Of a stretch of 64,000 nt of DNA, positions 25,916 to 57,625 are shown piece after piece (position 1 is the first letter of the stretch; each line of letters starts with the position of its first letter). A program made the translations under genes and the position numbers. The stretch is taken from positions 3,149,501 to 3,213,500 of the forward strand of contig NZ_CP019437.1 in NCBI RefSeq assembly GCF_001940525.2, read 5' to 3'. The DNA comes from Thioclava nitratireducens. GTDB taxonomy: Bacteria > Pseudomonadota > Alphaproteobacteria > Rhodobacterales > Rhodobacteraceae. Below the pieces are notes generated by a model that made no database searches, was not told the DNA's origin, and was given only the letters and a program-made list of their open reading frames with translations.

Positions 25916-26578
25916 ATGTTGATCCGAAAACATAAGCTGGTCTTTGTTCATATCCCGAAGACTGGTGGATCGAGTATTGTGAGGTCACTAAAGCCACATC
26001 GCGACCTTCGCAGCATTGCGTCTAGGCGACTCAACAAAACCTTGAACAGCCTACACATCCCATACAGGCTCAACGGGATTGACACGCAGGTCCATGCGTC
26101 GGCTCAAGATTATGCCGATGTTTTGGGGAGAGGCTTTGAGCGGTATTTCTCTTTCGCGATAGTCAGGAACCCCTTTGACTGGATGGTTTCGCTCTATCAT
26201 TTCAGCTTGAAGCGCCGAAAGACAGACGTCAGCTTTCGCGACTTCGTGCATACTTGCTCTGCGAAAGCACAGGCGGATTACATCACCGATGACAATGGAG
26301 AGGTCATTGTGTCTTTTGTAGGACGCTTTGAACGCTTGGCGAAGGACTTTCAAGCCGCTTCAGAGAAGATTGGCCTTGATCTGCATTTACCGCACCTTAA
26401 CGCGACGGATCACGAGCATTTCAGCCGATATTATGATGACGAAACCAGAGAAATAGTCGCGAGACGCTACAAGCGAGACTTCGATATTTTCGGCTATTGT
26501 GACCTGCCACGGGATTTTTCCTCCACCCGACCTGCCCCCCTTGGGGCCCTCGTTCATAACGAGAGTCTGCAGGTTTGA
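25916..26578 (+). CDS. Sulfotransferase family protein, 3' end overwritten by IS sequence
   Basis: The frame has 220 residues. The 5'-phosphosulfate-binding loop is [11 protein letters not shown] (residues 12-22) and the 3'-phosphate site is [16 protein letters not shown]. These proteins transfer sulfate from PAPS to carbohydrates or other acceptors, often in surface polysaccharide or LCO loci. The gene is visibly AT-richer than its neighbours, which indicates transfer. From about base 26528 the frame runs into the IS end, so the last 17 or so residues are not native; the catalytic part remains. Confidence 0.82.
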
Positions 26579-27462
26579 GATTGGTAGTCGGATCGGTTGT
26601 TGTGGGCAAGCGCGCCGGGCGCGGAGCCCTCAAATTGCTCAAGCGTCCGGCGCGCTTCGAGCGGCGTCTGGTTTCCCAGAGACGAGTGCGGTCTGACGGC
26701 GTTGTAGTCGTAGCGCCAGAGCGCCAACTTGCGCCGGGCATCGTCCAGTGTGTCGAAGATCTCCTCGTTTAATAATTCGTCGCGCAGGCTTCCGTTGAAG
26801 GACTCGATGAACGCGTTCTGCTGCGGCTTGCCGGGGTCGATGTAGTGCCAGGGAATGGCGTTCTGGTCGGCCCATCTCAGGATGGCCCGGCTGGTGAACT
26901 CCGTCCCGTTGTCGCTGACAATGCAAGCAGGCTTTCCGTAGATCCGCACCAGCGCATCGAGTTCACGGGCAACACGCTTGCCCGATATACTGGTATCGGC
27001 GACCAGGCACAGGTTCTCTCTGCAACAATCGTCGATCACGGCCAAAATACGGAACTTGCGCGAGGCGCCGAAGCTGTCCGCCAGGAAGTCGAGCGACCAG
27101 CGCGCATTGGGATGCGCCGCCGCAGGCATCGGCGTGCGTGACCCGCGAGCCCGCTTGCGTCCACGCCGTCGCTTCACCGATAGCCCTTCCTCGCGATAGA
27201 GCCGATACAGCTTCTTGTGGTTCATGGTCATGCCCTTGCGCTCAAGCAGGATGCCGATCCGGCGATAGCCAAACCGGCGCCGCTTCCCGGCGATCTCCTT
27301 CATCTCCTCGCGGATCTCGGGGCAGTCCGGCGGGCGTGTGCGCCGGACCGTCTTGGGGTCGACACCGACAAGCTGGCAGGCCCGACGCTGCGAGATGTCA
27401 TGATCCCGCATCGCCCTGAGCGCCGCCTCTCGCCGCCTGGTCAATGTCGTCAGTTCTTTCCC
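26554..27462 (-). CDS. IS3-family transposase OrfB (DDE integrase)
   Basis: The catalytic part has about 300 residues. DDE residues are seen in VIDDCCRE (Asp), [10 protein letters not shown] (Asp) and [13 protein letters not shown] (Glu), with the IS3-typical ending [15 protein letters not shown]. An N-terminal HTH segment reads [18 protein letters not shown]. The 5' limit is approximate because OrfB is normally made by a -1 frameshift from orfA near GGGAAAGAAC. The frame has no stop, so it may be active. Confidence 0.88.
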
Positions 27463-27713
27463 AGCAGATCCTTCAGAACCACGTTGTCGAGCATGGTGTC
27501 GGCCAACAGACGTTTGAGCTTGGCGTTTTCGTCTTCGAGCGCCTTCAGCCTGGCTGCCTCGGAGAGCTCCATGCCACCATACTTGGCCTTGAACTTGTAA
27601 AAGGTCGCCGGGCTGAGGCCATGCCTGCGGCACACATCAGCTGTCGGCATGCCTGCCTCCTGCTCCTTGATCATCCCAATAATCTGCGCCTCGGTGAAAC
27701 GGCTTTTTCGCAT
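27450..27713 (-). CDS. IS3-family transposase OrfA
   Basis: The protein has 87 residues with an HTH_Tnp_1 domain ([17 protein letters not shown], then [20 protein letters not shown]) and a Leu-zipper-like tail ([17 protein letters not shown]). It overlaps OrfB in another frame at its 3' end. Confidence 0.9.
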
Positions 27714-30019: not shown

Positions 30020-30868
30020 CTAGTCGCGCAGCACCCCGGCGGCGGTCAGCGCGTGGCGGTCAGGCCGCCAGATATCGGTATGCGGTGTCGCGAAGACCCG
30101 CGCGGCGAAGCGCGCCGTCACGCCACGCTCGCGCAGGAAAGCGCGGTCGATCTCCTCCTCTTTTCCGATGTCGATCGGCAACGGGTAAGCTTCCAGGCTG
30201 TAGCCGTGAAAACCCAGCTTCCCTTCGGGGCCAAGATCGCGATGCGCGCCTGCCATGAAAATCAGCGTGCAGGCCGAGTAGCATCGCTTCGTCACCCGCG
30301 TCTTCAGCCCCCGCCTCATCACGCGCTGCGCCAGCGCGCGGGCGGCAAAGACGTGCCCACCGGCGCTGTCGAGATCGATCGCCGAGACGCCCTGCGTCGG
30401 GGTCGCCTCGAACCGAGCCAGAAGATCGTAGCTGATATCGCCGGTGAGATAGGCGATGCCGTTTCGCACCTCCAGCGGCATCGGCCCGGCATGAGCGATC
30501 GGCGCCAAGGCCATTGTTTGCCGTGCCGATTGGTCGAGCGCATGCGTCGCGCTCACCACCGCGACGGCCCCGATCGCCACACGCGCGGCGAACAGCACAT
30601 CGCCCCGTGCCCGCGCATCGACCCAATGTGAGACGCTGCGCCACGCCCCCACCACCTGCCATACCGCCAGCGCGATGTCCGCGAGGATGAGCATTGAGAA
30701 GAGTGGCATTGGCACCGGCGGCGACACGACCTGCCAAAGCCGAGCCACGGCGAACCGCCCGCCGATCAGCACGACTATAAGCGCGATCCACGGCGGGTAC
30801 GCGCCGCGCCAATATGCGCCGATGCCCCAGAGCGGGGCTGGTTGCGATGTCCGGGTGGCTCGGGCCAT
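30020..30868 (-). CDS. Membrane-anchored ClpP/crotonase-fold protein (COG3904-like)
   Basis: The protein has 282 residues. Three hydrophobic segments lie in the first 110 residues. A ClpP-like soluble domain follows, with LDSAGGHVFAARALA (about 166-180), the probable nucleophile Ser about 198 in KRCYSACTLIFMAG and His about 221 in LGFHGYS. The pattern fits COG3904 predicted periplasmic proteases. The third residue of the triad is not obvious. The gene ends at the edge of the hydrogenase region and is divergent from it. Confidence 0.78.
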   Translation of the reverse strand: MARATRTSQPAPLWGIGAYWRGAYPPWIALIVVLIGGRFAVARLWQVVSPPVPMPLFSMLILADIALAVWQVVGAWRSVSHWVDARARGDVLFAARVAIGAVAVVSATHALDQSARQTMALAPIAHAGPMPLEVRNGIAYLTGDISYDLLARFEATPTQGVSAIDLDSAGGHVFAARALAQRVMRRGLKTRVTKRCYSACTLIFMAGAHRDLGPEGKLGFHGYSLEAYPLPIDIGKEEEIDRAFLRERGVTARFAARVFATPHTDIWRPDRHALTAAGVLRD

Positions 30869-31028
30869 TCACGCCGTCCTTTCGAACACTATCAAGCGTC
30901 AGTGTAGCACGACCGAGCCGAAAACCGGGAATCCGCCTCGCCGACCGGGCTGCGAGGCAGTCCGAAGGTGGACCTTCTGCGACGACGGGAGCCTCTGTTA
31001 TACTTTTCGGATAGGGAGGTTTCTTCGC

Positions 31029-33101
31029 ATGATCACGCTGACGATCAATGGGCGACATATCGACGTCGAGGACGGCACCAGCTTGCTGGAGGCGGCGAAG
31101 ACAGCCGGCATCCACATCCCGACCTTGTGCCATTATCCCGGCCTGCCCGCCCATGCCGTGTGCCGCATGTGCCTCGTGGAGATCGAGGGCACGCAGAACC
31201 CGCAACCGGCCTGTCGCACTCTGGCGAAGGATGGGGACGTGGTGACGACGGACAGCGAAGCGCTGACTGCCTTTCGGAAAGCCGATGCGGAATGGCTGCT
31301 CGCGCGGCATCCGAACGACTGCATGCGCTGCGAAGTGAACGGGGCGTGCCAGCTCCAGCGTCTCGTCCATGAGAACCAGTGGGAAGAGCGTTGGCCGAAG
31401 ACGCCGGCCGGGGCCGTCACCGCGTCGGAAGAACTCTCCTGCGATCACACCTCCCCCAGCATCTGGCGGGACTTGTCGAAGTGTATCGAATGCGGGCTTT
31501 GCGCGGAGGTCTGCGGCGACAGCGTGCAGAACCAGAACGTGATCGGCTTCGCCAATCGGGGCTTCGACCGGCGCCCCGTCACCGTCTTCGACGTGCCGCT
31601 GTCGCAGACCAACTGCATTTCCTGCGGCCAGTGCACACTTGTCTGCCCGGTTGGCGCGCTGATCGAGGCCCCGCATTGGCACGAGGTGCTGCGCACGCTC
31701 GATGCCCATCGGCGGGTCTCCGTGGTTCAGGTCGCCCCGGCGACCCGCATCGCCATCAGCGAGGAATTCGGTCTGGAGTCGGGAACTGTCAGCACAGGGC
31801 GCCTGATCAATGCGCTGCGGCTCTTGGGGTTCGATTATGTGTTCGACACGAATTTCGCTGCCGATCTCACGATCATGGAGGAAGGCACTGAATTGCTGTC
31901 GCGCCTCGAGGCGGGCACGGAGCTGCCGCTGTTCACCTCCTGCTGTCCGGGCTGGGTGAACTGGGTCGAGTTGAACCGGCCCGATCTTCTGCCGCATCTG
32001 AGCACGACCAAATCGCCACAGCAGATGCATGGCGCGATCGCCAAACGGGGTCGCTTCGCGCGGTCTCTGGGCCCTGATTTCGCAGACGGCAAGGCCGAAC
32101 CCTACGTGGTGAGCGTGATGCCCTGCACCGCCAAGAAGGACGAGGCTCAGCGGCCCGGCGTCTCGGGCGACGTGGATCATGTGCTCACCACCCGAGAGCT
32201 GGCGCGGATGATCCGGTCGCGCGGGATCCCGTTCGGGGCGCTCTCCGAGGACGGGCAATTCGACAGCCCGCTGGGCGAGAGCACCGGGGCCGCCCAGATA
32301 TTCGGCGCCTCGGGCGGCGTCATGGAGGCGATGGTCCGCACGGCTGCGCATTTCAAAGGGGTCGAGCACGATCTGCCGCTGGAATGGGAGGCACTGCGCG
32401 GTGTGCGCGAGGGCGTGAAGACCGCGACCATTCCCGGCGTCGGCACGGTGGCCGTGTGCAACGGGATCGCGTCCGCCCAGCGCATGCTGGAGGATGAGAC
32501 GTGGCGCGAGGACTATGTCGCGATCGAGGTCATGGCCTGCGTCGGTGGCTGCCTCGGCGGCGGCGGCGAGCCGAAATCCATGGACCCGCAAATTCTGCAA
32601 AAACGGGCCAAGGCGATCTACAGCGTCGATGCAAAGGCACCGCGCCGCCGTTCCTATGAGAATGCGGATGTGCAGGCGCTCTATGCCTCGGAACTGGGCG
32701 CGCCGAACTCCCCGACCGCGCACCATCTGCTCCACACCCATTACGCCGCCAGACATTCCAAGCGTTCGCTGCTGATGCGCTTTCTGGATTGCGTGGACCG
32801 GCGCGACGGTGCAGCGGCTGCAAAGCTGTTTCATCCCGACGGGGTCTGGTCGACCGCCTCTCCCTTCGGCGTGCTGACCGGCGCGGACGAGATCGCGGGG
32901 TTCATCAACGCGAAGCTTCCGCCGAACCTGCGCGGCGCGAAATATGCGCGCCACCAGATGGAAACCGCGGCCGATACAGACGATCTCACGGTCCTCGCCC
33001 CCGACGGAAGCCGCAGCCGCTTCGATCTGGAGCTGAGCACCGTGGAGGAGGACGGATATTCGCAGATGGCGATCAAGACCCTCACGCGCACGGTCCTTTG
33101 A
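31029..33101 (+). CDS. hydA: [FeFe]-hydrogenase, M3-type, with extra C-terminal NTF2/SnoaL-like domain
   Basis: The protein has 690 residues; ATG 31029 follows GGGAGG. Domains in order: a [2Fe-2S] ferredoxin domain (Cys 34, 45, 48, 62); the His-Cys cluster (His 94, Cys 98, 101, 107); two [4Fe-4S] sites (Cys 152, 155, 158, 162 and 196, 199, 202, 206); and the H-cluster domain. The latter has TSCCPGW (Cys 305, 306), MPCTAKKDE (Cys 366) and EVMACVGGCLGGGGEP (Cys 504, 508), so every H-cluster ligand and the proton-relay Cys are kept. A small-subunit-like segment runs to about 572. Residues about 575-690 are extra compared with CpI of Clostridium pasteurianum (574 residues) and look like an NTF2/SnoaL fold. 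Catalysis of H2/H+ exchange or H2 sensing is inferred. Such enzymes are rare in Rhodobacterales. Confidence 0.9.
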   Translation: MITLTINGRHIDVEDGTSLLEAAKTAGIHIPTLCHYPGLPAHAVCRMCLVEIEGTQNPQPACRTLAKDGDVVTTDSEALTAFRKADAEWLLARHPNDCMRCEVNGACQLQRLVHENQWEERWPKTPAGAVTASEELSCDHTSPSIWRDLSKCIECGLCAEVCGDSVQNQNVIGFANRGFDRRPVTVFDVPLSQTNCISCGQCTLVCPVGALIEAPHWHEVLRTLDAHRRVSVVQVAPATRIAISEEFGLESGTVSTGRLINALRLLGFDYVFDTNFAADLTIMEEGTELLSRLEAGTELPLFTSCCPGWVNWVELNRPDLLPHLSTTKSPQQMHGAIAKRGRFARSLGPDFADGKAEPYVVSVMPCTAKKDEAQRPGVSGDVDHVLTTRELARMIRSRGIPFGALSEDGQFDSPLGESTGAAQIFGASGGVMEAMVRTAAHFKGVEHDLPLEWEALRGVREGVKTATIPGVGTVAVCNGIASAQRMLEDETWREDYVAIEVMACVGGCLGGGGEPKSMDPQILQKRAKAIYSVDAKAPRRRSYENADVQALYASELGAPNSPTAHHLLHTHYAARHSKRSLLMRFLDCVDRRDGAAAAKLFHPDGVWSTASPFGVLTGADEIAGFINAKLPPNLRGAKYARHQMETAADTDDLTVLAPDGSRSRFDLELSTVEEDGYSQMAIKTLTRTVL

Positions 33102-33290
33102 TGCGGTGATGTGCAAGCATTGCCCGCAGCGGCCGACGACAGATCGCGAATTGATCAACTCGCCGACCCCACGCGCGTTTCTTCTTCCCTTCTTGTTCTA
33201 GAGCAAAGCCATAGCGGGCGACGGGGTTCATCCTTTGCGACGTATCACACCTGCCCTCCCTGCGGGACGAGAAACCGGAACGGATTCATC

Positions 33291-34541
33291 ATGCCGAGTC
33301 AGAGCCGCGACGAGATCGAACACGTATTGTCCAGCGCGAAAAGCCGCCGACCTTGGCGGCTCTGGGCCCTCGGCGCGGGGGCCCTCGTGATCGCGGTCGG
33401 CGCTTGGGTCTGGTTGGCGCCGTCCCGCGACAGCACCGGCACGAGCTACATCACGCAAGCCGTCACGCGCGGCGATTTGACCGTCACGGTCACCGCGACC
33501 GGCACGGTGCAGCCCACGACGGAAGTCGAGGTCTCCTCGGAGCTGTCGGGTACGCTGGCAAGCATCGACGTCGACTATAACGACGAGGTCACGGTGGGTG
33601 AGGTGCTCGCGCGGCTCGACGATACGAAATTCAAGGCGCAGGTCGCCAATGCCGAGGCCGCGCTCGCGGCCGCCAAGGCGCAGCTCGCACAGGCCGAAGC
33701 CACCCAGAAGGAAGCGACGGCACTCTATGAGACACAGGCGGAACTGGACCGGCGTGGCGTCTCGACCCATAGCACCTTCGTCACCTATATCGCGCAGCGC
33801 GATCGCGCGGTGGCGGCCGTTCAGGCCGCGAAAGCGTCGCTGACTTTGGCCGAGGCGAACCTTGCTTTGGAGAAGGACGATCTGGAGAAATCGGTCATCC
33901 GGTCCCCGATCAACGGCGTCGTTCTGGACCGCAATGTCTCGGCCGGTCAGATCGTGGCCGCCTCGCTATCCGCGCCCACCTTGTTCACGCTCGCCGAAGA
34001 CCTACGCCGCATGCAGTTACTCGTCGATATCGACGAGGCGGATATCGGTCAGGTCGCGGTCGGCAATGACGCGACATTCACCGTCGACGCCTATTCCGGT
34101 CGCTCTTTCCCGGCGACGATCACGCAGGTGCGCTACGCCCCCGAGACAACCGACGATGTCGTGACCTACAAGGGTGTGCTGGCGGTCGACAATGCCGACC
34201 TGCTGTTGCGCCCCGGCATGACCGCGACGGCGACGATCACCGTGGACGAGGCCAAGGACGCGCTCCTGATCCCGAATGCGGCGCTGCGCTATGCGCCCCC
34301 GCAAGAGGTCGAAGACGCAGGCAATGGCGCGAGCGGGCTCATCGGCCTCGTGATACCGAGCCGACCGGGTTCGGAGAGCGGTACCGCGAGCGGGAAATCC
34401 GTCTGGGTCCTTCGCGATGGCACCCCCGTCGAAGTGGCGGTCACGCCGGGCGCGACGAATGGCAAGTTCACGATCGTCACCGCGGGCGATCTGGCCGTCG
34501 GCGATCAGGTCATCACCGATCAGCGGGATACGTCGCGATGA
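33291..34541 (+). CDS. macA: Periplasmic adaptor (membrane fusion protein) of a MacAB-type exporter
   Basis: The protein has 416 residues from ATG 33291. One N-terminal membrane anchor (about residues 23-42) is followed by a biotinyl-lipoyl half (VTVTATGTVQPTTEVEVSSE), a long Ala/Gln/Glu coiled-coil hairpin (about 110-200), the second lipoyl half (IRSPINGVVLDRNVSAGQIV) and beta-barrel domains. It bridges the inner-membrane exporter and an outer-membrane channel. The next ATG overlaps its stop. The symbol is by family similarity only; the cargo is unknown. Confidence 0.88.
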   Translation: MPSQSRDEIEHVLSSAKSRRPWRLWALGAGALVIAVGAWVWLAPSRDSTGTSYITQAVTRGDLTVTVTATGTVQPTTEVEVSSELSGTLASIDVDYNDEVTVGEVLARLDDTKFKAQVANAEAALAAAKAQLAQAEATQKEATALYETQAELDRRGVSTHSTFVTYIAQRDRAVAAVQAAKASLTLAEANLALEKDDLEKSVIRSPINGVVLDRNVSAGQIVAASLSAPTLFTLAEDLRRMQLLVDIDEADIGQVAVGNDATFTVDAYSGRSFPATITQVRYAPETTDDVVTYKGVLAVDNADLLLRPGMTATATITVDEAKDALLIPNAALRYAPPQEVEDAGNGASGLIGLVIPSRPGSESGTASGKSVWVLRDGTPVEVAVTPGATNGKFTIVTAGDLAVGDQVITDQRDTSR

Positions 34542-35242
34542 GTGAGCCACTCCTCGAGTTACGCGGGATCGAGCGCCACTATGGCCATGACGAAACCCTC
34601 GTGCGCGCCCTCGATGGCGTCGACCTTCGCGTCGAACCGGGGGAATTCCTTGCGATCATGGGGCCCTCGGGGTCGGGAAAATCGACCGCGATGAACATCA
34701 TCGGCTGTCTCGACCGGCCGACTGCGGGGAATTACCTGTTCAACGGCGTCGAGGTCGCGACCCTGAACCGCGATCAACGGGCCCTGCTGCGCAGGCATTA
34801 CCTCGGCTTCGTCTTTCAGGGCTACAACCTTCTGCCCCGCACCACCGCGCTGGAGAACGTCGAACTTCCGCTGATCTATAAAGGGATGCGGAAGGCCGAA
34901 CGCGTGGCGCGCGCCCAGCTGGCTCTGGCACGGGTCGGGCTTGAGGGGCGCGAGGATCACACGCCGTCGCAGCTCTCGGGCGGTCAGCAGCAACGGGTCG
35001 CGATCGCGCGGGCGCTTGCGGGAGAACCGATGGTTATGCTCGCCGACGAGCCCACGGGCAATCTCGACACCAAACGCAGCGTCGAGATCATGGACCTGAT
35101 GCAGGATCTCAACCGCGAGTCCGGCCTGACCATCGTCATGGTCACGCATGAGGAGGATATGGCCGCCTACGCTTCGCGCCTCGTCGTCTTCACCGACGGC
35201 CGGGTCGTGCGCGACGAGAAGATGCGCGAGGGGGCCCTGTGA
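34538..35242 (+). CDS. ABC transporter ATP-binding protein, MacB/LolD type
   Basis: The protein has 234 residues. It shows Walker A (GPSGSGKST), [13 protein letters not shown], the Q-loop [22 protein letters not shown], the signature [15 protein letters not shown] and Walker [13 protein letters not shown], the LolD/MacB-type ending. In this operon ATPase and permease are separate genes, whereas E. coli MacB is a fusion. It starts inside the adaptor gene and its stop overlaps the permease start. Confidence 0.92.
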
Positions 35243-36447
35243 TGCTCTGGGAAACCATCCGGCTCGCACTCACCGCGATCACCCGAAACGCGCTTCGCTC
35301 CTTTCTCACCGTGCTGGGCGTCGTGATCGGGGTGGCGGCCGTCATCGCGATGATGACCGTCGGGCAAGGTTCCTCGGAACAGGTCTCGGCGAATGTCGCC
35401 GCGCTCGGCACCAATGTTCTCGTCCTGCGATCCGGTGCGCGGATGATGGGGCCCGGATCGCGCGAGGCCGCCCCGCCCTTCAAGCTGTCGGACGCCGAGG
35501 CGCTGAAAGACCTGAGCAGCCTCTCCGCCGTCGCGCCGGTCGTCTCGACCGCGGCCACGGCCGTGTTCGGCAATAACAACCGCATGACTTCGATCACCGG
35601 GACGACCTCCGCCTATCTCGATATCGGTGGCTGGTCTCTCGCACTCGGGCGCAGCTTCACCCCGGCCGAGGATCGCAGCGGCGCCAATCTTTGCATCATC
35701 GGCGAGACCGTGCGGACGACCCTGTTCGGCGCGACCGATCCGACCGGCGATAAGGTCCGCATCAAGTCGATTTCCTGCGAGGTGATCGGCTTGCTGAAGG
35801 CGAAAGGCGCAGGCTCGTTCGGGCAGGATCAGGACGATCTCGTCATCATGCCCATCCGAACGGTGCAAAGACGGCTGATGGGCAGTCAGGACGTTTCCAC
35901 GATCTCGGTTCAGGTCGCGCCGAACGTGTCGACGGCCCGGGCGACCTCCGACATTGAGACCCTGATGCGCGAGCGGCGTCGCATCGCCATCGGCGAAGAG
36001 GACGATTTCTCGGTCTTCGACATGGCCGAGCTGAGTTCGATGCTCAATTCGGTCAACTCGGTGCTCACCGGCCTGCTCTCCTCCGTCGCGGCGGTCAGCC
36101 TGCTGGTGGGCGGCATCGGCATCATGAACATCATGCTCGTCTCGGTGACCGAGCGTACCCGCGAGATCGGCATCCGCCTCTCGGTCGGCGCGCAGGCGCA
36201 TCAGGTGCTGATGCAGTTTCTGGTCGAGGCGGTGGTGCTCTCGGTTCTGGGCGGGATCATCGGCATCCTCTTCGGCCTCGGCCTCGCCTATGTCGCGTCG
36301 CGGATCATGGCGATCCCCTTCTCGCCACGCCCGGATATCATTCTTCTCGCCTTCGGCTTCTCGGCGGTAGTGGGAATGGTCTTCGGCTACTTCCCGGCGC
36401 GACGCGCGGCGCGGCTCGACCCGATCGATGCGCTTCATTACCAGTAG
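35242..36447 (+). CDS. ABC transporter permease, MacB/FtsX type
   Basis: The protein has 401 residues. An N-terminal membrane segment (RSFLTVLGVVIGVAAVIAMMTVG) is followed by a large periplasmic MacB_PCD domain of about 230 residues and three C-terminal membrane segments (VGGIGIMNIMLVSVTERTREIGIR motif). It completes an adaptor-ATPase-permease exporter. The ATG overlaps the preceding TGA by one base. Confidence 0.92.
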   Translation: MLWETIRLALTAITRNALRSFLTVLGVVIGVAAVIAMMTVGQGSSEQVSANVAALGTNVLVLRSGARMMGPGSREAAPPFKLSDAEALKDLSSLSAVAPVVSTAATAVFGNNNRMTSITGTTSAYLDIGGWSLALGRSFTPAEDRSGANLCIIGETVRTTLFGATDPTGDKVRIKSISCEVIGLLKAKGAGSFGQDQDDLVIMPIRTVQRRLMGSQDVSTISVQVAPNVSTARATSDIETLMRERRRIAIGEEDDFSVFDMAELSSMLNSVNSVLTGLLSSVAAVSLLVGGIGIMNIMLVSVTERTREIGIRLSVGAQAHQVLMQFLVEAVVLSVLGGIIGILFGLGLAYVASRIMAIPFSPRPDIILLAFGFSAVVGMVFGYFPARRAARLDPIDALHYQ

Positions 36448-36534: not shown

Positions 36535-36846
36535 TCAATGCGTCCAGTTCGCGCGGCGGTCGGTGGCGAAGTTCTCGCCGTAGCCGCGAGCGCGCACATT
36601 CGGGGCGCGCTTATGCGGCTCGGTCACGACGTAATCGATGCCCTTTTCCTTGGCATAGGCTTCCGCCGCTTCGCGTGTCTCGAAGCGCAGCCGTACCTGC
36701 GCCTGCGTGTCGTTCGAGCTGGTCCAGCCCATCAGCGGGTCGATTTCGCGAGCGTCGGCAGCGACGTAGTCGAGATACCAGAACCGCGTCTTCGCGTTGC
36801 CCGATTGCATGGCGTTGCGGGCGGGTTGGTAGATGCGCGCGCGCAT
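36535..36846 (-). CDS. NADH dehydrogenase complex I accessory subunit (NDUFS4 homologue)
   Basis: The protein has 103 residues from ATG 36846 (GGAG upstream). The ETC complex I family pattern is visible: [20 protein letters not shown], then [29 protein letters not shown] and [12 protein letters not shown]. In mitochondria and alphaproteobacteria this 18-kDa-type subunit stabilises the NADH-oxidising arm of complex I. The gene stands apart from the nuo operon, as usual. Confidence 0.92.
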
Positions 36847-37259
36847 GGGCAAACTCCTCTGCGATACCTCTGGCTTTTCTTAGTGCATCTGCAACAAATC
36901 GCAAGCCCCGGAGCGCAATGGCAACGGATGCGCGGCGATTATGCAGGGTGCAGCGGGAAGGAAGGAAGACCGCCCGCCGCTGTTGCCCGGGCATCGGCTT
37001 TGCACAAAGAAGGTGGCGGACCTGCGGACCGACCGGAGGGCAAGCTCAGGGTGACGCGCCGCTCGGCGGTCGGACACGCCCCAAGAGGCAAAAGACGCTC
37101 CGCCGGACCGTCGCGACCCCAGGCCGAACTCCGCCACAAGCCTCTGTTAAATATGGACAATCCGACAGCGCGCATTAAGCTTTTCTCAACCTCCCTCGCA
37201 AACCCTTGAATGCGAACGAAAAGAGGACAAATCTGGGGAGCAAGCAAAAGGTCTGCCCG
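36847..37259. other. Non-coding stretch before uvrB
   Basis: About 410 bases with no convincing gene. Short G+C-rich dyads are present. TTAAATAT at about 37146-37153 could be part of a uvrB promoter. I see no alphaproteobacterial SOS box (GAAC-N7-GAAC or GTTC-N7-GTTC). Confidence 0.4.
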
Positions 37260-50438: not shown

Positions 50439-51458
50439 TCAGAAATCAAAGTTGTCGATATTATCCTTGGTGAACACGGTGCGTTCGGGCAGCAAAACGA
50501 TGCCGTTATCCTTGGCTTCATAATCGTAGCCTTGCACCGAGTTGGGCGAGACCTTCACTTCGCCGATGCCGGGCACATCCATCGTGTCACCGACCTGAAG
50601 CGGCCCGTTCTTGAGCACGTGATCGGCGACCGCCACCGAGATCGCACCCTGCTGGGTCACGTCCCACAGGCCGAAGCGCGCAACCGTTCCGCGCTTCACA
50701 TAGGGGCGCATCACGTTGGGTGTCGAGAAGCCCACGATCGTCACTTTGCCAGCCTTGTCCAGATTTTCGGCAGCTTGGGCTGCGGCGGGAAGCGCGTTGG
50801 CATCGGGCGCGATGATCGCGTCGAGATCGGGATAGGCGCTGAGGATGCCCTCTGCGGTCTGAAGCGATTTCTGCGCGTCGTTATAGCCGTACTGCGTGGT
50901 CACGATTTCCCAGCCGGGATGCTCCTTCGCGATCTTCTCCTTCGCGGCCGCGACCCAGGCGTTCTGGTCGGTCACGGTCGGCGAGGAATAGAAGAAGGCG
51001 ACCTTGGCCTTGTCCTTGCCGTTCAGCCCGTCGGATGCCATGTCCACCAGCATGCCGCCCAACTGCGCGGGCGTGCCCTGGTTGATGTAGTAGGAGCGGC
51101 AATCCGGGTTCACATCCGAGTCCCAGGTCATCACCAGCACGTCGCGCGCCATCGCTTGCTTGAGCGCCGGGCAAAGGCCATCGGGCGAGACCGAGGCGAG
51201 GATCACCGCCTTGTAGCCCTGATTGACGAAGTTGTTCACGAACTGAACCTGCCCTGACACGCTGGGTTCGGTCGGCCCGTCATAAGTGACGTTGTCGCCA
51301 AGCTTCTTGCCCATGTCGACAGCGCCCTTGCCGCCCGACGTGAAGTAGCCCACCCCGACAAGCTTCGGAATGAAGGCGATGTCCTCGGCCGCGGCCGAAT
51401 TGGCCATCAGCATCCCTACCGCAAGGGTGCCCATCACCCATTTGGTCGATTTACGCAT
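50439..51458 (-). CDS. lsrB: AI-2 periplasmic binding protein LsrB
   Basis: The protein has 339 residues with a signal peptide ending at SAAAED. It follows E. coli LsrB nearly word for word in key segments: [57 protein letters not shown] and [11 protein letters not shown]. These contain the AI-2 ligands (Lys, Asp, Asp, Pro, Ala positions of the known receptor). It captures the furanosyl form of AI-2 for LsrACD. Confidence 0.96.
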
Positions 51459-51491
51459 TTCAGTTCTCCTCCTCTGAACTCTCTGGACGCG

Positions 51492-52475
51492 TCATTCTGA
51501 CGGACGCGGCCGCACCGGAATGAACTCGCGCAGCAAGGACGCCCCGTGGCGCATTGCGACGACGACAACCAGCAGCGCTCCGGACAACGCGCTGGAAACC
51601 TGACTGGGAACACCGCTCATCTGCAGGCCCTGCTGCAGGTAACCGATGATGAAAGTGGCGATGATGGTGCCGATGACCGAGCCCTGACCGCCATAGATCG
51701 AGGCGCCTCCGAGAACGGCGGCGGTGATCGCGGGCAGCAGCGTTGCCTTGCCCAGATCGACCCGCGCCGAGCCGAAATAGGCCGACAGCAGCAGCCCCGC
51801 GAGCGCGGCGGCAAGCCCGGTAATGACATAGGTCAGCAGCTGCACCCGAGCGACGGGCATGCCCGCGTGGCGCGCGGCGGATTCGTTCTGGCCGATCTGG
51901 AACACCAGACGCCCGAAGCGCGTGACATGCAGCAGAACCAGCATCACCAGCGAGAAGGCGAGGAACACGAAAAGCGGCATCGGCAGGCCGAGGATCATCT
52001 GGTAGCCAAGCCCGGTGAAGGCCGCCGGGAAGCCGCCGATGCCGTCATAGCCGTTCGCGCCGACGACGCCGGAGAGCACCGTGGCCGCGCCCGAGAACAT
52101 ATAGAGCGCGCCAAGCGTCACCACGAGCGGTTGCAGCCGCGTGAGCCGGATGATCGTCGCGTTCAGCAGCCCCGCGAGCGCACCCGTCGCGAAGCCCACC
52201 GCAAGCGAAACCGGAAGCGGCATCCCGAAGAAATTGGCAATCCCGAAAGTGATCGCACAGAGCCCGACGGTGGAGGCGAAGCTCACGTCGATCCCGCCAG
52301 CGATGATGACGAGCGTCAGCGGCACCGCGACGATCCCGACATGCACGAAATCCGAGGTGCCATAGAGCAGCGAACTCAACTTGAGGAAGCGCGGATTGAT
52401 GGCGCCGAACACCACGAGCTCAAGGACCAGAAGCCCGAGCAACAGGACCTCCCAGCGCATCACGAGACGCTTCAT
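51492..52475 (-). CDS. lsrD: AI-2 ABC transporter permease LsrD
   Basis: The protein has 327 residues, a BPD_transp_2 permease with about nine membrane segments. Typical stretches are AGGIDVSFAS, NAAGLLNA-like LNATIIRLTRLQPLVVTLG and ITAAVLGGASIYGGQGSVIGT. It overlaps lsrC by 4 bases and precedes lsrB. Confidence 0.92.
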   Translation of the reverse strand: MKRLVMRWEVLLLGLLVLELVVFGAINPRFLKLSSLLYGTSDFVHVGIVAVPLTLVIIAGGIDVSFASTVGLCAITFGIANFFGMPLPVSLAVGFATGALAGLLNATIIRLTRLQPLVVTLGALYMFSGAATVLSGVVGANGYDGIGGFPAAFTGLGYQMILGLPMPLFVFLAFSLVMLVLLHVTRFGRLVFQIGQNESAARHAGMPVARVQLLTYVITGLAAALAGLLLSAYFGSARVDLGKATLLPAITAAVLGGASIYGGQGSVIGTIIATFIIGYLQQGLQMSGVPSQVSSALSGALLVVVVAMRHGASLLREFIPVRPRPSE

Positions 52476-53482
52476 GCCGCTTCCTCCAGATCACGGGTTT
52501 TGGGTGGGGGCGTTTCGCCTCGGCGGTAACGCGCCGCGCGGTCGCGCGCTTCCAGCGCGATCCGCAGTCGACCGTCGATCAGCAGCACGGCGAGCAGCAT
52601 CGCTCCGCCGATGAGGTCGTTCCAGTAGGCCGGGATCTTGAGGAAGACGAGCGCGGTGTTGATCGAGGTGAAGAAGATCACGCCGATCACAACCCCGGCA
52701 ACCGATCCGACGCCGCCCAGCAGGCTGATCCCGCCCAGCACGAGCGCCGCGATCGCGCGCAGTTCCATCCCCGAGCCAGCCTGATTGGGCACGAAGCCGA
52801 TCTGCGCCGCAAAGGCGATACCCGCGATGGCATACATCGCGCCCGCCCAGACAAAGGCGAGAAACTCGATCCGGCGCACCGGCAGGCCCAGATGGCGCGC
52901 TGCCTCGCGGTTGTCACCTACCGCGAAGATCCAGCGTCCGCGCCGGGTGCGCAGCACCAACCAGACCGCCGCGATCAGCGCGAGCGCTACGACACCCACC
53001 GCCGACAGCCCTAGGAAACCTTTGCCGGAGAGGTCCTTGACGCCTTGCGGCAGCTCCTCGATCCACTCGCCGCCGGTGGCGATCAGCATCACGCCGCGGA
53101 ACAGGCCAAGCGTGCCAAGCGTGGCCACGATGGAGGGCACGCCAAGCAGCGCCACGAGCCCTCCATTGAGCGCGCCCGCTGCCACGCCCGCGCCAAGCGC
53201 GGCCGCGATCGCCACCGGGAGCGACGCCCCTGCGTTCACCGTCAGGCCCAGCGTCACCGCCGAGAGCCCGAGCACCGAGCCGCCCGAGACGTCGATATTG
53301 CGCGTCAGGATCACTGGAAAAATCCCCAGCGCCACGAGCATCAGCACCAGGCCGTTCGACCAGATGATCGAAGCGGTGCGCGCCGAGAGGAACCCAGGCG
53401 CCGCCGCACCGACAAGCAACAGCACGATCAGCGTGACGAGGAACAAGGTCGCGACACGTTCGCGGGCGATCCGTTCAAGCAT
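52472..53482 (-). CDS. lsrC: AI-2 ABC transporter permease LsrC
   Basis: The protein has 336 residues. It aligns with enteric LsrC in [46 protein letters not shown] and [20 protein letters not shown]. It overlaps lsrA by 8 bases. The C-terminal tail is rich in Arg and Pro ([12 protein letters not shown]), as in the E. coli protein. Confidence 0.94.
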
Positions 53483-54950
53483 GGACGGCCTCCTTGGATT
53501 CGAAGGCCAGTTCGGCGATCTCGTCGGTGCTGCTTCCGCCCGGAAGCTCGCCGGCGAGGTGCCCGCCCGCCATTACCGCGATCCGGTCCGACAGGCGCAC
53601 GACCTCGTCGAAATCAGAAGAGATCAGCAACACCGCCGTGCCTGCGTCGGCCAGCTGTTCGATCAGTTCGTAAATATCGTTGCGCGCGCCCACATCGACG
53701 CCGCGCGTCGGCTCGTCGAGGATCAGAACCCGCGGCATTGCGGCGAGGCATTTCGACAGCAGAACCTTTTGCTGGTTTCCACCCGAAAGGCTGCGCACCG
53801 GTTGCTCCGCCGTCTCGCATTTGATCCCAAGCGTCTTGCGATAACCTTCGAAGCGCGCGCGCTCTGTGCCAGGCCGCAGCAGGAAGGGCAGCAGATAATG
53901 CACGAGCGAAGAGGTATTCCAGTAAAGTGGCGCATCGAGAAAGAGCCCGTATTGCTGCCGGTCTTCGGACAGCAGCACGACATTCTCACGCACCGCGTCG
54001 CGCGGTGTCCGGGCGACGAAAGCGCGGCCCTCGAGTGCGACCTTACCGCCAGCACGCGGCCGCAGTCCGACGAGGGTTTCAGCCAGTTCGGTGCGCCCTG
54101 CCCCGACGACCCCGGTCAGACCGAGAACTTCTCCGTGATGCACATCGAAAGAGATATCGACAAAGCCTTCGCCCCGTAGCCCCGCGACTTCGAGCGTCTT
54201 GCGCTCGGCGCGGGTCCTGTCGGCGCGGCGGTCGCGCAGGGCCGCGACACCGGGACTCATCGCGGCGAGAATCTCCGCATCGTTGCTTTCGGCCATCTTC
54301 GCGCTGTGCACGACATAGCCGTCGCGCAGCACCGTGATCCGGTCGCTGACCGCGCGCAACTCGTGCAGCTTGTGCGAAATGAAGACGAGCCCGTGACCTG
54401 TCGCGCGAAGCGCCCGCATTCGATCGAAGAGCGTGTCCACCTCATGCGGAGTAAGCGCCGAGGTCGGCTCGTCAAGGATCAGCACCTTCGCCTCGCGCAC
54501 GAGGCCCCGCAGGATTTCCACGATCTGTCGGTCTGCGATCTCGAGGGTCGCGGCCTTGGCATCGGGCGACAGCGCGACGCCAAGATCCGCGATCAGCTCG
54601 CCAATGCGCGCGCGATAAGCCTCTGCCCGGCGCGGCAGGCCAATGCAGATATTCTCCAGAACGCTTTGATTGGGGAAGATATGCGCCTCTTGCGGCACCA
54701 GATACAGCCCCATCGCCTGCGCCTGCGCGGGCGTCGCGGGATGCAGTGGCGCTCCACCAATGGAGACCCGCCCTGCCGTCGGCGCGACCAGACCTGCGAG
54801 GATTTTCATCAAGGTGGACTTACCCGCACCATTGCCGCCCAGAAGCGCATGGATTTCCCCGGCACGCACCGCGAAATCCACGCCCTTAAGCACGGGCACG
54901 CCGCCGTAGCTTTTAGAAACCCGGCCAAGCTCGGCGAGCACAGATGTCAT
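53475..54950 (-). CDS. lsrA: AI-2 ABC transporter ATP-binding protein LsrA
   Basis: The protein has 491 residues with two ABC modules of the sugar-importer type: Walker [10 protein letters not shown] in the N-terminal half and a degenerate GVVGAGRTE in the second. Signatures are [15 protein letters not shown] and [18 protein letters not shown], with [16 protein letters not shown] chose ATG 54950 because it has GAGGGAGG before it; the in-frame ATG at 54971 is weaker. It heads the leftward lsr operon. Confidence 0.94.
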
Positions 54951-55155
54951 AGCGCCTCCCTCGATCAACATCCCGTCTCCTCGAATGTTCATCTGTTTGT
55001 CGTGATGACATCTGTTCATCCGATATACTCGCTGTCAACAATTTTTAGCTTATTTTTTATGCTGCGATGCGGCGTTTTTGAGTTATTGACTTGTTCATAT
55101 GTTTTTGTAACGAGTTATTTGAACATTGCCCCACCACTTCGGAGGACCGATCGTC
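54951..55155. promoter_or_regulatory. lsrA-lsrR divergent regulatory region with TGTTCA half-sites
   Basis: This AT-rich spacer holds TGTTCAT at 54986-54992, 55013-55019 and 55092-55098, and the inverted TGAACA at 55120-55125. A -35 for lsrA (TTGACA on the minus strand, 55038-55033) lies just upstream of the second half-site. A -35-like TTGACT (55086-55091) for lsrR is followed by a half-site in the spacer. The layout fits LsrR repression of both operons, relieved by phospho-AI-2. Confidence 0.6.
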
Positions 55156-56094
55156 ATGGAAGAGCTAGCGCCGAACGAAACGGACGAAGCCCTGCTCGCG
55201 CGGGTCGCTTGGCTCTATTACAATGACGGGCTCACGCAGAGCGAAGTCGGGCATCAGCTCAACCTCTCGCGCATCAAGGTATCGCGGTTGCTCGATGCCG
55301 GACGCGCCTCCGGGCTGATCGAAGTGCGGATAAATTCGCGCCAGCAAGGCTGCCTCGACATCGAGACCCGTCTGCAGGAGCGATTCCGCCTCAAGGATTG
55401 CCGCGTGATCCCCGACAGCGCCGGATCAGATGTCGACGCGCGGATCGGACAGGCGGCGGCGAATTACCTCATGCAGAAACTCGCGCCCGGCGACAGTCTT
55501 GCGGTCGGCTGGGGCGCCACCGTGTCGAACGCCATCCGGGTGCTCGGCCATGTGGTGCAGGAGCGCCGGATCGAGCTGTTTTCGCTGACGGGCGGCGTGC
55601 AGACCTATGTGCAGGGGATGCGCGAGGCACATTGGGACCGCACGCCGAACATCATCCCCGCGCCGCTCGTCGTCTCGACGCCGGAACTGGCCGCCGCCCT
55701 GCTGCGAGAGCCTGCGATCTCGTCCTTGCTCAACCAGGCGATCGCGGCCGATTACAAGCTGGTCGGGATAGGCGGCATCTCGGAACAGGCGACCGTGGTT
55801 GCGCAAGGCTATATTACCGCAGGCGAAATCGAGCCACTGCGCCGCAGCGGTGCACGTGGCGATGTGCTCTGTCGGTTCTACGACCGGACCGGGCAGGACA
55901 TGGAGCTGCCGCTGCATGAGCGCGTGATCGGCGTCGATCTGGTCCAGCTCCGCGACTGCGAGCAGGTAATCGGCGCCGCCGGGGGCCCAAACAAGGTGAC
56001 CCCGATCCTCGCCGCGCTGCGCGGCCAAATTCTCGACATTCTGGTGACCGATGAGGCGACCGCGCTGTCGCTCCTCGACGCCGCGGAGGACTGA
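55156..56094 (+). CDS. lsrR: SorC/DeoR-type transcriptional regulator LsrR
   Basis: The protein has 312 residues from ATG 55156 (GGAGGA upstream). The HTH is at about residues 15-55 (LARVAWLYYNDGLTQSEVGH, LSRIKVSRLLDAGR). A sugar-binding C-terminal domain has GWGATVSNAIRVL and TGGVQTYVQGM. LsrR represses lsr genes until it binds phosphorylated AI-2. It is followed by lsrK after one base. Confidence 0.93.
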   Translation: MEELAPNETDEALLARVAWLYYNDGLTQSEVGHQLNLSRIKVSRLLDAGRASGLIEVRINSRQQGCLDIETRLQERFRLKDCRVIPDSAGSDVDARIGQAAANYLMQKLAPGDSLAVGWGATVSNAIRVLGHVVQERRIELFSLTGGVQTYVQGMREAHWDRTPNIIPAPLVVSTPELAAALLREPAISSLLNQAIAADYKLVGIGGISEQATVVAQGYITAGEIEPLRRSGARGDVLCRFYDRTGQDMELPLHERVIGVDLVQLRDCEQVIGAAGGPNKVTPILAALRGQILDILVTDEATALSLLDAAED

Positions 56095-56095
56095 C

Positions 56096-57625
56096 ATGCG
56101 CTATTTTCTCGCCTTCGACGCTGGCACCGGCAGCGGGCGGGCCGTCCTGTTCGACGAGACCGGCGCCGAGATCGCGACCGCCGGGCAGGAATGGTGGCAC
56201 GCCAGCGACCCGCGCTATCCTGGCTCGATGGATTTCGACACGGAAGGCAACTGGGCAGCGCTGGCCCGCTGCTGCCGCGAGGTGATCGCGAAGTCCGGTG
56301 TCGATCCAAAGGATATCGTCTCGGTCAGCGCCACGGCGATGCGCGAGGCCTTCGTTCTGCATGACGAGAGCGGTGCGGAAATCTGGGCCTGTGCGAATGT
56401 CGATGCGCGCGCCGATGCCGAGGTCCGCGAACTCAAGCGGGACTATCCGGGGCTGGAGGAAGACATCTATGCGCGCTCGGGGCAAACCTACGCGCTTGGA
56501 GCCCTCCCCCGGCTGATCTGGCTGCGCCGGCACATGCCCGAGGTGCTCGACCGGGCCCGGGCCCTGACGATGCTGTCGGATTGGGTGCTCTATCGGCTTT
56601 CGGGAGAACTCACTTCCGAGCCGTCAAATGCCGGGACGACCGGGCTGATCGGCCTCGCAGATCGCAAGGTGCTTGGCGACGCGATGGAGAAACTGGGGCT
56701 GCGCAGCGACATCTTCCCGCGCGGCGTCGTGACCGGAGAATGCGTGGGCACGGTAACAGGCGCGGCGGCAGAGGAGACCGGGCTCGCGCCTGGTACGCTG
56801 GTCGTGGCGGGTGGCGGCGATTGCCAAACCGGGGGACTAGGGCTCGGGATTGTCGGGAATGGCGATTGCGCGGTGCTCGGCGGCACGTTCTGGCAGCAGG
56901 TGGTCAATGTCCCGCTGACCCTGACCGACCCGAGCATGAAACTCCGGATCAACCCGCATGTGGTCTCGCATCTCAATCAGGCCGAAGCGATCAGCTTCTT
57001 CACCGGGGCAGCGATGCGTTGGTTCCGCGACGCCTTCGGGCAGGGCAAGGGGTATTCCGAGCTGGAAGCCGCCTCGAAGGAGGTGCCGCCCGGTGCGCAT
57101 GGGATCATCCCGATCCTGTCCGACGTGATGCGCTACCACGAATGGATCCACGCGGCCCCGTCGCTGCTCAACCTTTCGCTCGATCCCGAGAAATCCGGGC
57201 CCGCCGCGATCTTTCGCGCCTTGCAGGAGAATGCCGCCATCGTCGCGCATCGCAATCTCGAGGCGGTCTTCGCCCTGACCGGCGAGCGCCCCGCGCGCAT
57301 CGTCTTTGCCGGAGGCGCATCGAAATCCCAGCATTGGGCGCAAATCCTTGCGGATGTTACCGGCCTGCCGGTCGCCACTTCGAAGGTGAAGGAAGCCACC
57401 GCGCTTGGCTGTGCGGCAGCGGCCGCGACCGGGTCCGGCCAGTTCGGCTCGCTGAAGGACGCAGGCGCGGCATGGTCCTGCATCGAAGATGAATACCAAC
57501 CGAACCGCGCGCTGCGCGACCTCTACGACGAGGCAAGCGACCGCTGGCAACGCGCCTATGCCGCGCAGCGCGCGCTGGTGGCCGAGGGCGTCACCCAATC
57601 CATGTGGCGTGCCCCGGGCACGTGA
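56096..57625 (+). CDS. lsrK: Autoinducer-2 kinase LsrK
   Basis: The protein has 509 residues, an FGGY-family kinase. Motifs match LsrK rather than xylulokinase: FDAGTGSGRAVLFD, SMREAF-like ATAMREAFVLHDESG, IWACANVDARADAEV, SEPSNAGTTGLIGLAD, VLGGTFWQQVVN and VFAGGASKSQHWAQILADV. It phosphorylates imported AI-2 (DPD), trapping it and giving the LsrR inducer. Confidence 0.96.
   Translation: MRYFLAFDAGTGSGRAVLFDETGAEIATAGQEWWHASDPRYPGSMDFDTEGNWAALARCCREVIAKSGVDPKDIVSVSATAMREAFVLHDESGAEIWACANVDARADAEVRELKRDYPGLEEDIYARSGQTYALGALPRLIWLRRHMPEVLDRARALTMLSDWVLYRLSGELTSEPSNAGTTGLIGLADRKVLGDAMEKLGLRSDIFPRGVVTGECVGTVTGAAAEETGLAPGTLVVAGGGDCQTGGLGLGIVGNGDCAVLGGTFWQQVVNVPLTLTDPSMKLRINPHVVSHLNQAEAISFFTGAAMRWFRDAFGQGKGYSELEAASKEVPPGAHGIIPILSDVMRYHEWIHAAPSLLNLSLDPEKSGPAAIFRALQENAAIVAHRNLEAVFALTGERPARIVFAGGASKSQHWAQILADVTGLPVATSKVKEATALGCAAAAATGSGQFGSLKDAGAAWSCIEDEYQPNRALRDLYDEASDRWQRAYAAQRALVAEGVTQSMWRAPGT

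What the first reader, a model, noticed from the sequence alone, without database searches (positions are those of the whole stretch)
31029..33101. Clostridial-type [FeFe]-hydrogenase fused to an NTF2/SnoaL-like domain in a Rhodobacteraceae-like genome
The sequence shows every metal ligand of a CpI-like hydrogenase, including all H-cluster Cys and the proton-relay Cys of TSCCPGW. About 115 further residues follow the normal end of the enzyme. This tail (FLDCVDRRDGAAAAKLF, GVWSTASPFG, LTGADEIAGFI) resembles a SnoaL/NTF2 ligand-binding fold. [FeFe]-hydrogenases are rare in this bacterial group, and I know of no described enzyme with this fusion. The tail could bind a small ligand and gate or sense H2 turnover.
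Basis: partly seen in the sequence, partly recalled or inferred. Interest (0 to 1): 0.85.

Follow-up and report, generated by a model that had tools for sequence, protein, structure and literature searches.

The report
Hydrogenase clade without its maturation machinery
This gene encodes an iron hydrogenase with an extra small domain at its end, shared by a wide group of proteobacteria whose searched genomes show none of the three helper enzymes generally held necessary to build its active site, so how it works, or whether it still handles hydrogen, is an open and testable question.

Summary

The more surprising fact is genomic. In 45 tailed-clade genomes HydG (E<=0.001), HydE (over cut-off) and HydF (E<=1e-30) are found in none; four Thermotogota genomes with untailed HydA have them in 4, 4 and 3 of 4. 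The window's own complete genome has none over cut-off. HypE is in only 8 of 46 hosts. Yet the di-iron pocket and proton path are nearly unchanged in 183 sequences, and selection is purifying (dN/dS 0.06-0.12 in five pairs).

Either this clade gets its di-iron site without HydEFG, or it uses an intact-looking active site for something else. Missing maturases were already reported for Rhodospirillum rubrum. I found no paper on the tail or on its link to missing maturases in ten library searches.

The parts
31029..33101 (+). CDS of the tailed [FeFe]-hydrogenase homologue, 690 aa
31029..31256 (+). N-terminal [2Fe-2S] domain (Fer2_4, residues 1-76; C34, C45, C48, C62)
31275..31379 (+). His-Cys3 [4Fe-4S] region (NADH-G_4Fe-4S_3, residues 83-117; H94, C98, C101, C107)
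31461..31673 (+). two [4Fe-4S] ferredoxin motifs (about residues 145-215; C152, C155, C158, C162, C196, C199, C202, C206)
31719..32564 (+). H-domain (Fe_hyd_lg_C, residues 231-512)
31941..31946 (+). C305 (proton-relay Cys, CpI C299) and C306 (cubane ligand, CpI C300) of TSCCPGW
   Evidence: both Cys in 183 of 183 aligned members
32124..32126 (+). C366, cubane ligand (CpI C355), in MPCTAKK with K369 (CpI K358)
   Evidence: 183 of 183
32538..32552 (+). C504 and C508 (CpI C499, C503; bridging Cys) in ACVGGC
   Evidence: 183 of 183; the residue after the first Cys is V in 166 of 183, H in CpI
32589..32753 (+). Fe_hyd_SSU, the usual HydA C-terminus (residues 521-575)
32754..33098 (+). C-terminal NTF2/SnoaL-like domain, residues 576-690

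Best explanation
A redox enzyme of a proteobacterial clade derived from group A [FeFe]-hydrogenases, encoded mostly by a gene that stands alone. Electrons pass along the N-terminal [2Fe-2S] and three [4Fe-4S] clusters to the H-site. I think it most likely still does proton-coupled chemistry there (H2 turnover or a close relative of it) on an H-cluster or H-cluster-like di-iron site that reaches it by a route not involving HydE, HydF or HydG. The C-terminal NTF2-like domain, present in every complete member seen, most likely serves this altered assembly or protection of the site, or senses a ligand. Shown here: the complete ligand set and proton path, purifying selection, no detectable HydEFG, the predicted NTF2 fold, and a tree in which the tailed proteins lie together. 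Inferred: that a di-iron cofactor is present, the reaction, and the role of the tail.
For: The four H-cluster Cys, the relay Cys and the CpI-equivalent E279, E282, K358, M353, M497, P231, P324, F417 and V423 are unchanged in 183 of 183 aligned members; S319 and R286 in 182, Q325 in 181 (named loci and database proteins overlap). CpI variants at E279, E282, S319, R286 and C299 have solved structures that align to this model (titles), so these residues are not needed merely to fold, which argues for a working proton path. Of 98 columns invariant in 17 untailed hydrogenases, 85 keep the same residue in at least 98% of 185 tailed rows. dN/dS in five pairs is 0.06-0.12 for residues 1-575 and 0.14-0.22 for the tail. 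In 45 tailed-clade genomes: HydG at E<=0.001 in 0, HydE over cut-off in 0, HydF at E<=1e-30 in 0, against 4, 4 and 3 of 4 Thermotogota controls. The window's own 100%-complete genome has none over cut-off. In 398 Pseudomonadota genomes 3 carry the tailed protein and none of these has HydG at E<=1e-60; the one other genome with a match has an apparently untailed HydA with HydG about 1.2 kb away. Tree on the columns up to residue 575: 67 tailed rows lie on one side of a branch (SH-aLRT 100), stem 2.1, crown median 0.43.
Against: I know of no established HydEFG-independent H-cluster pathway in bacteria, and cyanide/CO supply by the [NiFe] system is also missing in most hosts (HypE over cut-off in 8 of 46, not in the window's genome). 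Cultures of T. chilensis, T. kuenenii and T. pelophila, reported to carry group A1 [FeFe] sequences, consumed no H2 under the conditions used (PMC4744846, passages). No widely conserved neighbour gene points to a partner or maturation factor. The active site is not wholly frozen: CpI G418 is Ala in 12 of 183, and the residue inside ACxGGC varies; 13 of 98 otherwise invariant columns have changed or loosened. One of 67 loci (L099, a MAG) looks broken by frame changes or assembly error. The tail/maturase association is a single evolutionary event, so it is not independent evidence that the tail replaces maturases.
Confidence: 0.42

Rival explanations
1. Repurposed non-hydrogenase: the protein carries its electron-transfer clusters and only the [4Fe-4S] cubane at the H-site (like HydA made without HydEFG) and serves as an electron carrier or a redox or ligand sensor, with the NTF2 domain as the new binding part.
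For: HydEFG not found in any host searched; long stem leading to the clade (2.1 against a crown median of 0.43); fixed signature changes such as R152L beside an accessory [4Fe-4S] cluster, F493A and Q509E (CpI numbering); no H2 uptake measured in three Thiomicrospira species. [quoted passage not shown]
Against: Residues whose recalled role is in proton transfer or di-iron binding (C299, E279, E282, K358, M353, M497 in CpI numbers) are unchanged in 183 of 183 sequences.
Confidence: 0.37
2. An ordinary [FeFe]-hydrogenase whose maturases are present but too diverged to be recognised, or that is served by the [NiFe] maturation system in hosts that have it.
For: 8 of 46 hosts have HypE over cut-off; 9 of 45 hosts have weak below-cut-off HydE matches.
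Against: HydG gives no match even at E 0.001 in 45 of 45 tailed genomes and in G000. The weak HydE matches look like biotin-synthase-type radical-SAM relatives (inference, not checked). 38 of 46 hosts have no HypE over cut-off, the window's genome among them (one of the 38 has a partial 118-bit match). HydG and HydE score over cut-off in 4 of 4 and HydF in 3 of 4 Thermotogota controls.
Confidence: 0.13
3. A decaying relic of a hydrogenase kept by chance after its maturases were lost.
For: Patchy distribution: 1 of 248 genomes of the window's family and 3 of 398 Pseudomonadota genomes sampled. One of 67 loci, L099 from a MAG, matches in three pieces with a gap of about 78 residues, so it is broken or misassembled.
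Against: dN/dS 0.06-0.12 over residues 1-575 in five pairs; 62 of 67 loci encode an unbroken protein of 687-702 aa with the tail, and four more are cut only by contig ends; 65-94% identity to the query across alpha-, beta- and gammaproteobacteria and Mariprofundus.
Confidence: 0.03

Closest known systems
CpI, group A1 [FeFe]-hydrogenase of Clostridium pasteurianum
   Different: No NTF2 tail; CpI needs HydEFG (recalled); NF040762 cut-off of 900 not reached (451.7)
NADH-dependent group A6 and HydABC-type hydrogenases (NF040763; 8a6t HydA1)
   Same: Best NCBIfam score (659 bits over 2-575) and best PDB sequence match (8a6t_A, 494 bits)
   Different: NF040763 cut-off of 765 not reached; an annotated A6 gene lies beside NuoF- and NuoE-like partners (Parabacteroides), which are not seen next to this gene; no tail in the two annotated A6 proteins looked at (596 and 578 aa)
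Putative group A1 [FeFe]-hydrogenases of Thiomicrospira/Hydrogenovibrio and Roseibacterium (PMC4744846; passages)
   Same: Same family: Thiomicrorhabdus chilensis DSM 12352 is L098 (71% identity, 690 aa); Roseibacterium elongatum is P0074 (80%, 644 aa)
   Different: In the passages seen neither the tail nor missing HydEFG is mentioned; the authors leave the function open and report no H2 consumption in three species
HydA of Rhodospirillum rubrum without maturases (as told in PMC4967309)
   Same: An alphaproteobacterial HydA in a genome without the maturases, called probably inactive or of different role
   Different: Whether it carries the tail was not tested; it is not among the 79 loci
HydA proteins with other accessory domains (CbA5H, PMC13397568; HydA-rubrerythrin chimera of Clostridium perfringens, PMC11926857; listings and abstract starts only)
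   Same: A [FeFe]-hydrogenase joined to a further domain
   Different: The domain here is NTF2-like
NTF2/SnoaL/ketosteroid-isomerase-like fold (5tgn Sthe_2403)
   Different: Two searches for shorter relatives of the tail (37 and 80 hits) gave what look like C-terminal pieces of the same protein, judged by length, Pfam and names only; 5tgn is an uncharacterized protein

Membership tests
Group A [FeFe]-hydrogenase | TIGR02512 curated cut-off | tested here: met
   440.1 bits against 405.95
Group A [FeFe]-hydrogenase | four Cys of the H-cluster, relay Cys, di-iron pocket, proton path | tested here: met
Group A [FeFe]-hydrogenase | HydE, HydF and HydG in the genome (generally held necessary for activity) | tested here: not met
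   for the window's genome; for 45 others
Group A [FeFe]-hydrogenase | H2 production or uptake | not testable with these tools
   no assay; PMC4744846 reports no H2 uptake in three species with related sequences (passages)
NADH-dependent group A6 (NF040763) | curated cut-off of 765 bits | tested here: not met
   659.4 bits
NADH-dependent group A6 (NF040763) | NuoE/NuoF-like partner genes beside hydA | tested here: not met
   neighbours in the window by ORF list and Pfam; no neighbour family in more than 12 of 68 loci
Clostridial ferredoxin hydrogenase (NF040762) | curated cut-off of 900 bits | tested here: not met
   451.7 bits
NTF2/SnoaL-like superfamily (tail) | Pfam SnoaL cut-off | tested here: met
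   SnoaL_4 34.2 bits against 24; SnoaL_2 matches 62 of 63 and SnoaL_4 59 of 63 tails at E<=0.01
NTF2/SnoaL-like superfamily (tail) | cone-shaped alpha+beta NTF2 fold | tested here: met
   predicted model only:
NTF2/SnoaL-like superfamily (tail) | ligand binding or catalysis in the cavity | not testable with these tools
   invariant charged and aromatic residues exist (R579, D590, R592, W607, R641, H642) but no ligand is known

The most novel reading that the evidence does not exclude
The clade is a self-sufficient or differently matured [FeFe]-hydrogenase: a functional H-cluster (or a close di-iron analogue) is assembled in these proteobacteria without HydE, HydF and HydG, and the fused NTF2-like domain takes part, for example by holding a precursor or shielding the site in place of HydF.
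Probability: 0.18. Interest if true: 0.95.

Novelty: new variant of a known kind. Interest (0 to 1): 0.68.

Why it matters
HydEFG is generally held to be required for an active [FeFe]-hydrogenase. A widespread, conserved clade with an intact active site and no detectable maturases makes it directly testable whether another assembly route exists, or shows how a hydrogenase active site can be kept for another job. Either outcome matters for H-cluster biogenesis, for hydrogenase annotation (source records name many of these proteins '[FeFe] hydrogenase, group A' or NuoG) and for engineering hydrogenases in aerobic hosts. The hosts include cultured genera (Thioclava, Hyphomonas, Thiomicrorhabdus, Janthinobacterium).

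Tried and rejected
Uniqueness of the fusion was rejected: one search lists 120 proteins of 642-727 aa at 72-99% identity, covering 91-100% of the query (7999 candidates scored, only the best 120 seen), and one search gives 67 tailed loci.

Operon partners or neighbouring maturation genes: no neighbour family occurs in more than 12 of 68 loci (67 plus the window), and those 12-locus families sit at scattered distances (flanks up to 10 kb, shorter where contigs end). 38 of 59 loci with neighbours on both sides have no same-strand gene within 100 bp (ad hoc gene finder). Pfam on 20 chosen neighbours gave assorted genes.

Fnr-type regulation: 3 of 65 upstream regions have a site with at most one mismatch, 19 with at most two. 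No sigma-70-like site was found in 30700-33400.

Plasmid carriage: 9 plasmid records match below 60% identity, the aligned part ending at residue 562 or before; none shows the tail.

Rescue by the [NiFe] system: HypE over cut-off in 8 of 46 hosts, plus one partial match of 118 bits.

Stand-alone relatives of the tail: 37 and 80 hits, which by length, Pfam domains and names look like C-terminal pieces of the same protein; I did not check each one.

Defence role: no PADLOC match.

Dropped or missing rows: those 5 of 67 loci were left out of the 62-locus counts. 46 of the 67 tailed loci were sent to the maturase searches; one genome (L083) was not held, so 45 were searched; the other 21 were not tried after a limit of 50 loci a call. 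Tree rows were those longer than 570 aa. CpI, Collinsella and Cetobacterium were left out of the second tree as long branches; the long branches that remain leave the outgroup order unsure. Roles of CpI residues are named from recall.

A model of the whole protein exists, but no coordinates or error matrix were available to me, so the docking of the tail was not judged.

Full report
1. Observation. The ORF at 31029-33101 (+) encodes 690 residues. Pfam and NCBIfam describe a long-form group A [FeFe]-hydrogenase followed by a SnoaL-like segment. Against PDB sequences the best matches are HydA1 of the Thermoanaerobacter kivui bifurcating complex (8a6t, 494 bits over 1-576), another HydA1 (7q4v) and CpI. 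The window lies in a 4.24-Mb, 100%-complete genome in three contigs. The closest named proteins are from Thioclava (94% T. sediminum, 89% T. pacifica). The gene has the base composition of its surroundings and is the only PF02906 match of the genome.

3. A clade, not a curiosity. A scan of one genome per species kept 79 loci (the best 80 of 321 relatives); 67 are proteobacterial with 65-94% identity, and the other 12 are Thermotogota at 45-49% without the tail (581-588 aa). All 62 complete proteins of the 67 have the tail (687-702 aa); four more are cut by contig ends and one MAG copy (L099) looks broken. Hosts by record title include Thioclava, Alloyangia, Jannaschia, Hyphomonas, Brevundimonas, Phenylobacterium, Thiomicrorhabdus, Hydrogenovibrio, Gallionella, Nitrosomonas, Rhodoferax, Janthinobacterium, Paraburkholderia, Pleionea and Mariprofundus. 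The trees are quick searches, and intermediates may be unsampled, because the scan used exact peptide patterns of the query. The gene is sparse: 1 of 248 genomes of the window's family (74 of 248 have a match at E<=1e-30, but apart from the window's gene these cover stretches within residues 1-246, which I take to be formate-dehydrogenase-type proteins) and 3 of 398 Pseudomonadota genomes.

4. No maturases found. In the window's genome HydE and HydG give no match at E 0.001, and HydF gives 8 matches below cut-off (best 69.7 bits against 325.55), which I take for other GTPases. In 45 tailed-clade genomes (46 of the 67 loci were sent, one genome is not held) HydG at E<=0.001 is in 0 of 45; HydE over cut-off in 0 of 45 (9 have weak matches); HydF at E<=1e-30 in 0 of 45. 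Four Thermotogota genomes with untailed HydA, searched in the same calls, have HydG 4 of 4, HydE 4 of 4 and HydF 3 of 4. In the 398-genome sample the three tailed genomes have no HydG at E<=1e-60, while the one other genome with a match (50% identity over residues 192-516, open frame of 415 aa) has HydG about 1.2 kb away. In 248 genomes of the window's family HydG is over cut-off in 0 (6 have weak matches). HypE, marker of the [NiFe] cyanide/CO pathway, is over cut-off in 8 of 46 hosts and not in the window's genome. Completeness of the 45 is not told; 24 are isolates by their record titles, the rest MAGs or unclear, but the result is uniform.

5. Yet the active site is intact. In 183 aligned tailed proteins (62 loci, 120 database proteins, the query; the first two sets overlap) every Fe-S ligand is Cys or His, bar two gaps each at C34 and C45. 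The four H-cluster Cys, relay Cys, E279, E282, A230, P231, S323, P324, M353, P354, K358, F417, V423 and M497 (CpI numbers) are unchanged in 183 of 183; S319, R286 and T356 in 182, Q325 in 181, A498 in 179, G418 in 171 (A in 12). Family residues that differ from CpI at 232, 268, 357 and 505 also occur in Thermotogota; V504 is L in 183 (I in Thermotogota). The residue inside ACxGGC is V in 166 (H in CpI). Of 98 columns invariant in 17 untailed hydrogenases, 85 are kept in at least 98% of 185 tailed rows; 13 are not, four of them in the N-terminal [2Fe-2S] domain. Fixed changes include R152L, F493A, Q509E and T420S in CpI numbers. Solved CpI variants at E279, E282, R286, S319 and C299 align to the model, so these residues are not needed for folding. 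dN/dS against four Thioclava and one Jannaschia relative is 0.06-0.12 for residues 1-575 and 0.14-0.22 for the tail; synonymous change is near or above 1 in some of these pairs, so the values are rough.

6. Surroundings. No neighbour family occurs in more than 12 of 68 loci, and most copies stand alone (38 of 59). In the window the gene lies between a divergent 282-aa protein without Pfam match, also beside the gene in three Thioclava loci, and a MacAB-type exporter. Some loci have glutamate synthase small-subunit-like genes (5 loci; one checked), short-chain dehydrogenases, phasin or Hsp20 nearby; I draw no conclusion from these.

7. Reading. Two readings compete. If the site carried only a [4Fe-4S] cubane, residues whose recalled role is to shuttle protons to, or hold, the di-iron unit should have drifted along the long stem and across the classes; they have not. 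If the site carries a di-iron unit, it must come from somewhere other than HydEFG, and usually also not from Hyp. I give the first (repurposed, 0.37) slightly less than the second (another route, 0.42). The tail appears on the same stem on which HydEFG seems to have been lost, but this is one event and cannot by itself show that the tail replaces maturases.

8. What is known. PMC4744846 (passages) reports that Greening et al. 2015 placed proteins of T. chilensis, T. kuenenii, T. pelophila and H. marinus in group A1, with Roseibacterium elongatum and Wenzhouxiangella marina as closest annotated relatives, that it remains uncertain whether they are functional, and that the three Thiomicrospira species did not consume H2. 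T. chilensis DSM 12352 is L098 here. PMC4967309 (abstract, passages, section 5 and part of the references) says that alphaproteobacteria such as R. rubrum have [FeFe]-hydrogenases but not the maturases and that earlier authors thought them inactive or of different role; it also reports other alphaproteobacteria with full maturase sets, and lists Entamoeba invadens without maturases. PMC7460606 (passages) mentions a possible case of maturation without added maturases in cyanobacteria and cites, by title, activity of a recombinant Entamoeba enzyme. So single maturase-less HydA are known. I found no paper on the tail, or on the clade-wide link between tail and missing maturases, in ten searches of the open-licence library (only the listed titles and abstract starts were seen, except papers named here and passages of PMC4257681, PMC4284687, PMC12924338, PMC3785491 and PMC8887013). 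Greening 2015, Hug 2010, Stairs 2015 and Meyer 2007 were not read.

9. Verdict. Real feature, correctly described at sequence level, wrongly thought unique. It is a new variant of a known kind: a group A [FeFe]-hydrogenase clade with an NTF2-like domain and without detectable HydEFG in its hosts. It fails one criterion expected of a working group A hydrogenase (maturases in the genome), so I do not claim that it makes H2.

Noticed in passing
window 30023-30868 (-): 282-aa protein divergent from the hydrogenase gene, no Pfam match; also beside it in three Thioclava loci (L036, L037, L092).
   Followed up: partly
window 33294-36444 (+): HlyD-type adaptor, ABC ATPase and MacB-type permease: a MacAB-like exporter right after the hydrogenase gene.
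   Followed up: partly
window 26557-27633 (-) and 25916-26575 (+): Transposase-like protein with integrase core (IS3-type by recall) in the GC-poorest 2-kb bin of the window (0.592), next to a Sulfotransfer_2 protein.
   Followed up: no
window 36538-36852 (-): NDUS4 (complex I accessory subunit) gene near the hydrogenase homologue; no link tested.
   Followed up: no
window 50439-57625: Sugar-type ABC transporter, SorC-like regulator and FGGY kinase, with a class II aldolase-like ORF just before; looks like an lsr- or rhamnose-like cluster by reading the ORFs (recalled, no family search).
   Followed up: no
window 58252-60709 (-): FAD-dependent dehydrogenase plus a membrane Fe-S/cytochrome-like protein resembling tricarballylate utilisation (TcuA/TcuB), by reading the ORFs only (recalled).
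   Followed up: no
L048, L050, L058, L079, L098: A glutamate synthase small-subunit-like oxidoreductase within 0.2-4.3 kb of the hydrogenase homologue in 5 loci (L098 checked): a possible electron partner in Thiomicrorhabdus.
   Followed up: partly
tailed family, CpI G418 position: 12 of 183 aligned members have Ala instead of Gly at a di-iron pocket position that is Gly in the untailed set.
   Followed up: no
L099:2-1674: Copy in a Thiomicrospira MAG matches the query in three pieces with a gap of about 78 residues: a broken gene or an assembly error.
   Followed up: partly
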